From positions 1 to 39,608 of the IMG/VR virus record IMGVR_UViG_3300048928_000218: 39,608 nucleotides of DNA. One strand, 5' to 3'. The stretch is from a virus. The notes under the pieces are model-generated. The model made no database searches, was not told where the DNA came from, and saw only the letters and a list, made by a program, of their open reading frames with translations. Of the stretch, positions 15,225 through 17,128 are shown one piece after another (position 1 is the first letter of the stretch; each line of letters opens with the position of its first letter). The position numbers and the translations under genes are program-made.

Positions 15225-16448
15225 TTAGCCCTTGACGCAGAGGACGGTGTCGAGTTTCTCGACGACGTCGACGAGGTCGGATTGGGCGGCGATGACGTCC
15301 TCGATGGGCTTGTAGGCGAGGGAGATTTCGTCGATGACGCCCTCGTCGGTGCGCGCCTCGATTCCGACCATGGTGCGCTCGACATCGGCGACGGTGAAGG
15401 TTCGCTTTGCCTTGGCGCGGGACATGACGCGCCCGGCGCCGTGGGAGGCGCTCTCGAAGCTGGCGGGGTTGCCCTTGCCGCGGACGATGTAGGAGCCGGT
15501 CGCCATGGAGCCGGGGATGAGCGCGAGCTCCCCGCCCTTGGCGCTGATCGCGCCCTTGCGGGTGACGATCATGTCGCGCCCGTCGATGACCTCCTCGGCG
15601 ACGTAGTTGTGGTGGCAGTTGATTTCGTCGCCGTAGTAGACGACGGGGCCCCGGTTGCCGAGGTAGGTGGAGAGCTCGCGCTTGACGAGGGCGACCATGA
15701 GCGTCCGCGAGTGCATCGCGTAGTCCTGGGCCCAGCGGAGGTCGCGAAGGTATGCGGCCATTTCGTGGGTGCCCTTGTGGAAGAGGGAGAGCTCGCGGAG
15801 GTGGTCGGGGAGGTCGGCGTTGGCGGGGAGGTCGCGGGCGACGCTCATGTGGTGCTGGGCGAGGACGTTGCCGGGGCCGCGTGAGCCGGAGTGCAGGGTG
15901 ATCCATACGCGGCCGGTGGAGTCGGTACAGAGCTCGATGAAGTGGTTACCGTGGCCGAGGGTGCCCAGTGATTGCCAGGCGCGATCGTACATGTCGCCGA
16001 GGTCGGCGTGGAGCTCGTCGAAGCCGCGCATGAGGCGCCGGGCCTCGCGGGCGAAGTGGGAGGGGAGGCCGTCACGGGTGTCGCGGAGCGGGTCGTGGAC
16101 GGCCTTGCCGACGGGGACGACGGCCTCGAATCGGGATCGGAGGGCCTTGAGGTCGCGGGCGTCGAGGTCCGTCAGGTGGAGGGAGGTACGGACGGCGTTC
16201 ACCCCACACCCGATATCGACGCCGACGGCGGCGGGGGCGAGGGCTTGCTCCATGGCGATGACGGAGCCGACGGTGGCACCCTTGCCGAAGTGGACGTCGG
16301 GCATGACGCGGAGGCCGTAGAGGCCGGGGAGCTCGGAGACGTCGCGAAGCTGGCGGAGGGCGGCATCCTCGATAGTGGACTCGTCGGCCCATGCGAGGAC
16401 GGGCGCGACGGTGCCGGTGAGGGTGACGGGGTAGGTGGAGTGAGTCAT
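15225..16448 (-). CDS. rtcB: RtcB-type RNA ligase, 407 aa
   Basis: Carries the full RtcB signature: PDVHFGKGATVGS (50-62), GVDIGCGV with metal ligand C81, GHGNHFIE (165-172, H169), LHSGSRG (H186), INCHHNY (H279/H280), GSMATGSY and SHGAGR with the guanylation His336. RtcB joins RNA 2',3'-cyclic phosphate to 5'-OH ends using GTP and Mn2+, as in tRNA splicing and repair. In a phage it may reseal tRNAs cut by host defence nucleases (inference). Copy 5 of the 32-bp element ends 5 nt before the ATG, so the mRNA should be leaderless. Length is normal for the family. Confidence 0.95.
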   Translation of the reverse strand: MTHSTYPVTLTGTVAPVLAWADESTIEDAALRQLRDVSELPGLYGLRVMPDVHFGKGATVGSVIAMEQALAPAAVGVDIGCGVNAVRTSLHLTDLDARDLKALRSRFEAVVPVGKAVHDPLRDTRDGLPSHFAREARRLMRGFDELHADLGDMYDRAWQSLGTLGHGNHFIELCTDSTGRVWITLHSGSRGPGNVLAQHHMSVARDLPANADLPDHLRELSLFHKGTHEMAAYLRDLRWAQDYAMHSRTLMVALVKRELSTYLGNRGPVVYYGDEINCHHNYVAEEVIDGRDMIVTRKGAISAKGGELALIPGSMATGSYIVRGKGNPASFESASHGAGRVMSRAKAKRTFTVADVERTMVGIEARTDEGVIDEISLAYKPIEDVIAAQSDLVDVVEKLDTVLCVKG

Positions 16449-16452
16449 GGCG

Positions 16453-16484
16453 GGAGATACCGCCTGGGAGCGCGCCCGTGCCCA
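16453..16484 (-). promoter_or_regulatory. 32-bp promoter-like element, copy 5 (leaderless)
   Basis: Minus strand reads TGGGCA-N14-GGCGGTATCTCC, then CGCC and the RtcB ATG. The hairpin terminator at 16495-16519 lies directly upstream. Confidence 0.75.
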
Positions 16485-16494
16485 GAAACACGAA

Positions 16495-16519
16495 AGGCCC
16501 CGCCGTGACGGCGGGGCCT
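16495..16519. terminator. Hairpin terminator upstream of RtcB
   Basis: Stem AGGCCCCGCCG / CGGCGGGGCCT with a TGA loop, followed on the minus strand by TTTCGTG. Confidence 0.7.
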
Positions 16520-16520
16520 C

Positions 16521-16528
16521 GTTTACAC
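16521..16528. repeat. GTGTAAAC dispersed motif, copy 5
   Basis: Plus strand reads GTTTACAC, between the RtcB-side terminator and the rightward promoter. Confidence 0.5.
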
Positions 16529-16543
16529 GCCACGCAAGTCGGT

Positions 16544-16572
16544 TTGCGTGGTAACGTGGATGTCGATAGGCT
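16544..16572 (+). promoter_or_regulatory. Rightward promoter TTGCGT-N17-TAGGCT
   Basis: The -35 TTGCGT (16544-16549) and -10 TAGGCT (16567-16572) are 17 bp apart, the same hexamers and spacing as the minus-strand promoter at 976-1004. The -35 is half of a perfect inverted repeat (16530-16551) that could be an operator. Predicted start near 16579; no protein gene follows before the terminator. Confidence 0.65.
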
Positions 16573-16578
16573 CGCGAT

Positions 16579-16694
16579 GCAGGGTAACCCGCCGCATGCG
16601 CGCTTGACGTCCCGGACTGGACTAGACCGAAGACTCGCCGAATTGCGTAGGGCCCTCTCGGAGGCTGGGGAGCCTGGCCGAGAGGGCCCTTTTT
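16579..16694 (+). ncRNA. Predicted plus-strand small RNA, about 115 nt
   Basis: Bounded by a consensus-like promoter and by a perfect 13-bp terminator ending in TTTTT. The 5' part can fold as ATGC...GGG-TAA-CCC...GCAT; the middle (about 16605-16648) looks unpaired; the 3' part is the terminator. There is no start codon with a ribosome site and a useful frame. It would be antisense-oriented to the rest of the genome and lies beside the RNA ligase gene. It is not a tRNA: no T-arm consensus. Function unknown; no homologue recognised. Confidence 0.5.
16649..16694 (+). terminator. Rho-independent terminator, plus strand
   Basis: Perfect stem AGGGCCCTCTCGG (16649-16661) / CCGAGAGGGCCCT (16678-16690) with a 16-nt loop and five T. 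On the minus strand the same stem lies just past the LAGLIDADG-like stop but lacks a T run, so its main direction appears to be rightward. Confidence 0.8.
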
Positions 16695-17128
16695 CATGCC
16701 GTGAGCGCGAGCGGCTTGGCGATGCCGAGCGGGCGGCCCACCTCGGGGCCGGGCGCGGACTTGGATGACTCGGCCGCCGTCCGGTAGTGGTGGATGGCGA
16801 TGACATCCGCCATGCGTCCCGAGCGCCGCGTCCCCATGTAGGGGAGGAGCTCGGCCATGATGGCGGCGGCGCGCGGGCCGGAGAGCTCGGCGTGCCACGT
16901 CGAGGCGGCCGGTGCGCGCTTGAGGGAGAGCCGGATGCGGCAGCCCATGAGCGACGCGGCGCGGCCGACGACGTCGCGGTCGGTCATGGCGAGGCGGATA
17001 CGCGGGTACTTTCCGCGGTGGGCGTCAAAGGTGCCCTCGCCCTCCAGGAGCCCGGCGAGCCAGATGACATCGTCTCGTGAGCCGAGGATCGCGCGGGGGG
17101 CGGGCGCCTCTTGGTCGGTGTCTGTCAT
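16694..17128 (-). CDS. LAGLIDADG-like protein, 144 aa
   Basis: The sequence WLAGLLEGEGTF (about residues 23-34) is a LAGLIDADG-type motif; RIRLAMTDRDVVGRAASLM and the later WHAELSGPRAAAIMAELLPYMG fit the alpha-beta-beta-alpha-beta-beta-alpha fold. One motif means it would act as a homodimer, either as a homing-type nuclease or a DNA-binding protein derived from one. It is a free-standing gene, not inside an intron. ATG at 17128 overlaps the upstream stop (ATGA). Confidence 0.75.
   Translation of the reverse strand: MTDTDQEAPAPRAILGSRDDVIWLAGLLEGEGTFDAHRGKYPRIRLAMTDRDVVGRAASLMGCRIRLSLKRAPAASTWHAELSGPRAAAIMAELLPYMGTRRSGRMADVIAIHHYRTAAESSKSAPGPEVGRPLGIAKPLALTA

What the first reader, a model, noticed from the sequence alone, without database searches (positions are those of the whole stretch)
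16530..16694. A plus-strand small RNA beside the RNA ligase gene
In a genome read almost wholly leftward, a consensus-like rightward promoter (16544-16572) leads within about 115 nt to a perfect 13-bp terminator with a T run, fitting the 245-bp gap between two genes exactly. No protein frame with a ribosome site is present. The -35 is half of a perfect 8-bp inverted repeat, suggesting control by a repressor. This may be a regulatory RNA, a decoy, or an RtcB substrate; the last idea rests only on adjacency.
Basis: partly seen in the sequence, partly recalled or inferred. Interest (0 to 1): 0.8.

Follow-up and report, generated by a model that had tools for sequence, protein, structure and literature searches.

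The report
Phage small RNA with G-rich loops
Phages of Microbacterium carry a small, previously undescribed RNA gene whose hairpins are tipped with runs of G that match the C-rich tips of a common bacterial regulatory RNA (6C), so the phage may use it to mop up that host regulator during infection.

Summary
The 245-bp gap carries a rightward promoter-like site and a strong rightward terminator, predicting an RNA of about 117 nt. Comparative data make it a real gene family: I found the same anatomy in 13 other Microbacterium phages or prophages, always in a gap and convergent on the gene upstream (endonuclease or lysis gene). All 14 have TTG(C/T)G-N17/18-TAnnnT on the RNA strand; shuffled gaps give this about 1% of the time. 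No Rfam family matches.

The bodies scarcely align, yet the hairpins, terminator included, are capped by exposed GGGG. Summed GGGG accessibility is 22.5 against 2.05±1.05 in shuffles; for CCCC it is 0.001.

RtcB adjacency is unique to the window, so the RtcB-substrate idea falls. The "operator" inverted repeat is best explained as two back-to-back -35 boxes of divergent promoters; the leftward one has lost its -10 here.

My best explanation is a target-mimic sponge for the host sRNA 6C, whose C-rich loops bind G tracts. I found 6C in 34 of 39 Microbacterium genomes; its loop UUCCCCCC is complementary to GGGGAA. Pairing, expression and function are untested. The RNA family is well supported; the 6C target is about even odds.

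The parts
16544..16572 (+). rightward promoter of the small RNA: -35 TTGCGT (16544-16549), 17-nt spacer, -10 TAGGCT (16567-16572)
   Evidence: sequence; same form TTG[CT]G-N17/18-TAnnnT in 14 of 14 homologous gaps, 0-8 of 300 shuffles per gap
16579..16695 (+). predicted small RNA, about 117 nt (start inferred as about 7 nt after the -10 box)
   Evidence: promoter-to-terminator distance and fold; 13 homologues of 81-137 nt; no Rfam match
16649..16694 (+). rightward intrinsic terminator: 13-bp perfect outer stem (16649-16661/16678-16690), inner AGGCT/AGCCT stem, T run 16690-16694
   Evidence: homologous terminators aligned
16667..16670 (+). GGGG apical loop, the conserved exposed element (predicted seed)
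   Evidence: unpaired probability about 1.0; GGG or GGGG in apical loops across the family
16530..16551 (.). 8-bp inverted repeat CCACGCAA/TTGCGTGG: two back-to-back -35 boxes; left arm is the remnant -35 of a divergent leftward promoter
   Evidence: divergent promoter intact in 7 of 14 relatives, -10 absent in the window
16521..16528 (.). GTTTACAC element, found in the spacer of the divergent leftward promoter in relatives
16495..16519 (-). leftward intrinsic terminator (12-bp perfect stem, 1-nt loop, then TTTCGTG) at the upstream edge of the RtcB cassette
16453..16489 (-). repeated intergenic element TTTCTGGGCA...CCCAGGCGGTATCTCC upstream of the RtcB start
   Evidence: GGTATCTCC-containing copies at 7 places in the window
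15225..16448 (-). RtcB-like RNA ligase gene; neighbour in this genome only
16694..17125 (-). LAGLIDADG-type endonuclease gene, convergent with the small RNA
   Evidence: 65-71% identity to Zetavirus and related homologues

Best explanation
The region encodes a stand-alone phage small RNA of a new family, here called the G-loop RNA. It is read rightward from its own promoter, away from a leftward phage promoter in those relatives that keep it, and ends at a terminator abutting the convergent gene's stop codon. Most members carry one to three hairpins plus a terminator whose tips expose GGGG, often GGGGAA. Most likely it acts as a target mimic (sponge) for the host 6C sRNA (called B11 in mycobacteria): the G caps pair loop-to-loop with 6C's C-rich loops (UUCCCCCC), which 6C uses to bind G tracts near ribosome sites of host mRNAs, so infection would relieve 6C regulation. 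Shown: gene anatomy, conservation, G-cap exposure, presence of 6C in Microbacterium, sequence complementarity. Inferred: transcription, timing, pairing in cells, benefit to the phage.
For: Gene family: 14 members with promoter, G-capped hairpins and terminator at two kinds of site. G caps are selected: summed accessibility of GGGG is 22.5 against 2.05 (sd 1.05) in dinucleotide shuffles (maximum of 200: 4.9), and accessible CCCC is 0.001. A broad hairpin survey of the same phage loci gave GGG loops in 8 of 10 small-RNA terminators against 22 of 435 other hairpins. Body sequences differ strongly while caps persist. Host partner: 6C next to tadA in Microbacterium; 34 of 39 genomes match my 6C model at E<1e-8; 39 of 60 Microbacteriaceae match RF01066 at E<=0.1. 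Complementarity reaches beyond G4:C4: GGGGAA matches UUCCCC, the usual 5' part of 6C loop 2. Mechanism of the partner is known: the C-rich terminator loop of B11/6C pairs with G tracts near RBSs (PMC12395582). Phage-encoded sponges exist (AgvB, AsxR; PMC12559287; PMC12197685).
Against: Accessibility-corrected duplex energies with 6C are not better than shuffles for individual RNAs: 7-60 of 100 shuffles do as well, because any G-rich RNA can pair with C6. The window's own RNA has a single GGGG cap, and its body loops are not G-rich. The caps have four G against six C, so only 4-6 bp form per kiss. 6C occurs in hosts whose related phages lack the RNA: no member was found in the Curtobacterium relative examined (L084), a genus of a 6C-bearing family. 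No expression data. C-rich sites other than 6C cannot be excluded as targets.
Confidence: 0.5

Rival explanations
1. The G-loop RNA is a direct antisense regulator of C-rich sites in host or phage mRNAs, not a sponge for 6C. The GGGG caps are seeds for several mRNAs, as in other sRNAs with homopolymer loops.
For: G caps are conserved and exposed; many C-rich sites exist in a GC-rich host and phage; some RNAs also have exposed G-rich 5' ends.
Against: Needs no special host RNA, so it does not explain why the cap extends as GGGGAA to match UUCCCC of 6C. No target search was run.
Confidence: 0.22
2. The RNA acts in cis on the convergent gene (endonuclease or holin), through antisense pairing at its 3' end, transcription collision, or as a shared bidirectional terminator, in the manner of lambda OOP.
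For: It is always convergent and ends at the stop codon of the upstream gene. In several relatives the hairpin also has a T run on the other strand and can end the leftward message.
Against: It does not overlap coding sequence beyond a few bases. The convergent gene differs among members (endonuclease or lysis gene) while the G caps stay. Body hairpins upstream of the terminator also carry G caps, which a shared terminator does not need.
Confidence: 0.13
3. The RNA is a protein decoy: its GGA-containing loops bind a CsrA-like or other RNA-binding protein, as CsrB or RsmZ do.
For: Several hairpin loops carry GGGGA.
Against: Two members (SuMoo, Mabodamaca) have GGGG caps without GGA. Whether a CsrA is present in Microbacterium was not tested; from memory it is not typical of Actinobacteria.
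Confidence: 0.07
4. The RNA is a replication or immunity RNA of the prophage, like the noncoding RNA needed for extrachromosomal prophages of mycobacteriophages, or a repressor substitute (no repressor gene is known in Percival, Floof or Zeta1847).
For: Some carriers may be temperate without an identified repressor (PMC7302621). Noncoding-RNA-based prophage origins exist in actinophages (PMC7157519).
Against: The mycobacteriophage RNAs sit beside parABS in phages lacking an integrase; Cen1621 and the Percival/Floof cluster carry serine integrases. The RNA and the divergent leftward transcript do not overlap, so no RNAI/RNAII arrangement is seen.
Confidence: 0.05
5. The RNA is a substrate of the neighbouring RtcB ligase.
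For: Adjacency in the window only.
Against: In the other members with both, RtcB lies about 20 kb or more away.
Confidence: 0.01

Closest known systems
AgvB and AsxR, prophage-encoded sponge RNAs of enterohaemorrhagic E. coli (PMC12559287; PMC12197685)
   Same: Stand-alone phage-encoded RNA genes. AgvB imitates the mRNA targets of a host sRNA (GcvB) and so inhibits it.
   Different: Different host phylum and different target sRNA; the E. coli RNAs work in an Hfq-based system (from memory). Here the proposed contact is G-cap to C-loop, repeated on several hairpins. No experiment yet.
6C / B11 RNA (Rfam RF01066), the proposed target
   Same: Similar size and plan: hairpins with homopolymer caps, the last one being the terminator.
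   Different: 6C has C-rich caps and is a host chromosomal gene beside tadA; the phage RNA has G caps, the complement. It is not a member of RF01066.
SprY-RNAIII (Staphylococcus aureus), described in PMC12197685
   Same: An RNA said to bind a loop of a host regulatory RNA in a sponge-like manner.
   Different: Unrelated sequence, host and target; no shared family.
lambda OOP RNA (from memory)
   Same: Short RNA read against the gene direction, terminating at the 3' end of the convergent gene.
   Different: OOP overlaps the cII coding region; this RNA stops at the stop codon, and the convergent gene varies among members.

Membership tests
Independent small-RNA gene (own promoter and intrinsic terminator) | Promoter and terminator on the RNA strand, conserved in relatives | tested here: met
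   14 of 14 members with TTG[CT]G-N17/18-TAnnnT; terminator hairpins with T-rich tails in most; tails weak in Barnstormer and Caron
Independent small-RNA gene (own promoter and intrinsic terminator) | Transcript detected | not testable with these tools
   No expression data for these phages
6C RNA (RF01066) | Two stem-loops with runs of C; model score above cut-off | tested here: not met
   No Rfam match at cut-off in the window or 12 relatives, and no 6C match at E<=5 in the gap; loops are G-rich and accessible CCCC is about 0
Phage-encoded sRNA sponge (AgvB/AsxR kind) | Exposed segment complementary to the active segment of a host sRNA | tested here: met
   GGGG(AA) caps against UUCCCCCC loops of Microbacterium 6C
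Phage-encoded sRNA sponge (AgvB/AsxR kind) | Predicted interaction stronger than for shuffled sequence | tested here: not met
   Single-RNA duplex energies are not exceptional: 7-60 of 100 shuffles reach them
Phage-encoded sRNA sponge (AgvB/AsxR kind) | Target sRNA present in the host | tested here: met
   6C in 34 of 39 Microbacterium genomes at E<1e-8. The actual host of the window phage is inferred from its relatives, and the named isolation strains were not checked one by one
Phage-encoded sRNA sponge (AgvB/AsxR kind) | Binding and derepression of the host sRNA's targets | not testable with these tools
   Needs experiment
OOP-type cis-antisense RNA | Substantial overlap with the convergent coding sequence | tested here: not met
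   RNA ends at 16694-16695; stop codon at 16694-16696
RtcB substrate | Conserved linkage to rtcB | tested here: not met
   rtcB lies about 20 kb or more away in the other carriers that have it
CsrB/RsmZ-type protein sponge | GGA in every hairpin loop and a CsrA homologue in the host | tested here: inconclusive
   GGA in many but not all caps; CsrA in hosts not searched

The most novel reading that the evidence does not exclude
A phage RNA family of Microbacterium disables the actinobacterial 6C regulon by G-cap to C-loop kissing. It would be the first phage antagonist of 6C (as far as the searches here show), and it would imply that 6C matters for phage infection.
Probability: 0.45. Interest if true: 0.85.

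Novelty: new variant of a known kind. Interest (0 to 1): 0.72.

Why it matters
Few phage small RNAs are described in actinobacteria. 6C is one of the most conserved actinobacterial sRNAs, yet its physiological purpose is unsettled (overexpression stops M. smegmatis growth; PMC8628891). A phage RNA built as its complement would give a natural antagonist with which to test what 6C does, and would show that phages target it. The family also gives a ready set of natural sequence variants for testing G-cap to C-loop recognition.

Tried and rejected
- E. coli-type promoter scan: no site at 9 of 12.
- Known RNA families: no match in the window or relatives; weak hits in the gap at E<=5 are chance-level. 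No tRNA or tmRNA in the window.
- An 11-bp long-range pairing of 16532-16542 with 16638-16648 looked like a closing stem, but its left arm lies upstream of the promoter and so outside the RNA.
- BLASTN with the window gap found no full-length relative. Homology was found through synteny with the endonuclease gene instead, then through sequences of other members.
- A promoter pattern alone (TTGCGCNNNTGGNACCGG) and cap patterns alone hit mostly unrelated contigs. In some searches the full architecture occurred only in this phage family, apart from one unrelated low-quality hit (L019).
- GardenState (L206) was retrieved by BLAST but has no member.
- Rfam's 6C model at its cut-off misses Microbacteriaceae; a CCCCCC pattern also missed them because loop 1 varies. 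Synteny with tadA and my own model solved this.
- Duplex energies against shuffles did not discriminate. I report this as a negative.
- Co-occurrence of the RNA with 6C across host families: 6C looks patchier in the Arthrobacter family (8 of 41 with RF01066 at E<=0.1; no strong match with my model), whose related phages lack the RNA. The model is biased and Curtobacterium does not fit, so I draw no conclusion.

Full report
What was claimed.

Check of the observation. All coordinates are right. The site TTGCGT-17-TAGGCT matches only 6 of 12 positions of the E. coli consensus, and the consensus scan lists no site in the region, so 'consensus-like' is too strong. The terminator is better than described: its 16-nt loop folds further, giving an 18-bp hairpin with a GGGG tip. 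The plus strand folds better than all 200 shuffles (z -3.7). No Rfam family and no tRNA is there.

What the surroundings show. The window is a virus record of 39,608 bases whose closest annotated relatives are Microbacterium phages (Zetavirus and related). The gene to the right is a LAGLIDADG-type endonuclease, 65-71% identical to those of Zeta1847, Honk, Cen1621 and others. Reading the gap beyond that gene in relatives, on the opposite strand, revealed the same anatomy in Zeta1847 and in two viral contigs. BLAST with those copies, and reading the gaps of named phages, added Cen1621, Honk, Barnstormer, Caron, Mabodamaca, SuMoo, Percival, Floof and phiMiGM15. A Microbacterium testaceum prophage was added later. 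The RNA sits in a gap and is convergent either on an endonuclease gene (8 members) or on the last gene of the lysis cassette (6 members; annotated holin in three, membrane or hypothetical protein in the rest).

Statistical support for a gene. All 14 gaps contain TTG[CT]G-N17/18-TAnnnT on the RNA strand; shuffles of each gap do so 0-8 times in 300. A blind detector (promoter plus hairpin with GGG loop and T-rich tail) over 2.65 Mb of loci returned 14 hits. After removing duplicate contigs, 11 of these are family members (the window included) and one (L019) is an unrelated low-quality hit; 4 hits came from reversed sequence. The members are related by descent, so these are not independent trials, but their transcripts differ in length (81-137 nt) and scarcely align outside promoter and terminator.

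The upstream inverted repeat. In 7 of 14 gaps a second promoter of the same form points the other way, TTGCGN-16/18-TAnnnT with GTTTACAC in its spacer, just upstream of the next leftward gene. Its -35 reads CGCAA on the RNA strand. In the window the leftward -10 is missing and a terminator plus a repeated intergenic element plus RtcB begins there instead. I infer that an RtcB cassette was placed at this spot, and that RtcB adjacency says nothing about the RNA.

The conserved feature. In 13 of the 14 RNAs the terminator tip exposes GGG or GGGG in the predicted fold or just beside it; most have another such hairpin or an exposed 5' G run. Summed over the family, the probability that GGGG runs are unpaired is 22.5, against 2.05±1.05 in shuffles of the same RNAs (maximum 4.9 of 200); for CCCC the sum is 0.001. 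In a loose survey of the same phage loci, 8 of 10 small-RNA terminators have GGG in the apical loop against 22 of 435 other hairpins (most of the 435 are not true terminators). A stricter perfect-stem count found only 5 of the small-RNA terminators, 3 with GGGG, and 4 GGGG among 126 others. The transcribed strand is the G strand: the promoter is on it, and G-capped body hairpins lie between promoter and terminator.

The likely partner. 6C (B11) RNA is a conserved actinobacterial sRNA with two C-rich loops. In Mycobacterium marinum the C-rich loop of its terminator is the part that pairs with G tracts near ribosome sites, shown by compensatory mutation (PMC12395582). Rfam's model barely recognises the Microbacteriaceae versions: 1 of 60 genomes pass the cut-off, though 39 of 60 match at E<=0.1. 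A clear copy in Herbiconiux lies beside tadA. Searching upstream of tadA in Microbacterium found 6C with loops such as AUUCCCCCCAU, and a model built from these and other family members matches 34 of 39 Microbacterium genomes at E<1e-8 (some of these contributed to the model). GGGGAA, present in most phage RNAs, is the exact complement of UUCCCC in loop 2.

How it probably works. The phage RNA imitates the G tracts that 6C normally binds, and occupies 6C's C-rich loops. Known analogues are the prophage RNAs AgvB and AsxR (PMC12559287; PMC12197685). Shown here: gene, conservation, exposed caps, partner present, complementarity. Inferred: transcription, early timing, binding, consequence. A caution: computed binding energies to 6C are no better than for shuffled sequences of the same composition, so the case rests on conserved placement of the G runs and on the known biology of 6C, not on energy.

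Novelty. No Rfam family matches. A survey of Microbacterium phage genomes describes intergenic repeats but, in the passages found, no such RNA (PMC7302621). Searches for phage sponges in actinobacteria found none; most subscription papers are not held. The RNA family appears new; the proposed mode (a sponge imitating targets) is known from other phages, so I rate it a new variant of a known kind.

Noticed in passing
window 8952, 11621, 13235, 15156, 16461, 19483, 21018 (minus strand): A repeated intergenic element ending in GGCGGTATCTCC, in several copies after a terminator and with the form CTGGGCA-N-CCCAGGCGGTATCTCC, just before gene starts; it resembles the start-associated repeats described in other actinophages.
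   Followed up: partly
window 15225-16520: RtcB with its upstream terminator and repeat element appears inserted at the sRNA divergent promoter; in named relatives rtcB lies near the right end of the genome (about 42-47 kb).
   Followed up: partly
L278, L286-L312 (tadA loci): Rfam RF01066 (6C) at its gathering cut-off misses nearly all Microbacteriaceae 6C RNAs, which sit beside tadA; the model could be improved.
   Followed up: yes
L041-L071, downstream of the LAGLIDADG gene: Arthrobacter-type relatives have, in place of the sRNA, a conserved element GTGAGCA-N-GGCCCTCTCCTC before the next gene.
   Followed up: no
L207 1548-1658: In phiMiGM15 a 111-nt ORF is annotated across this sRNA gene on the opposite strand; it is probably spurious.
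   Followed up: no
Zeta1847 (L075 3840-3869), L059 5537, Cen1621 (L077): Between the sRNA -35 and -10 lies a near-palindrome TGGNACCGGTNNCA, possibly a regulator site, shared by some members only.
   Followed up: no
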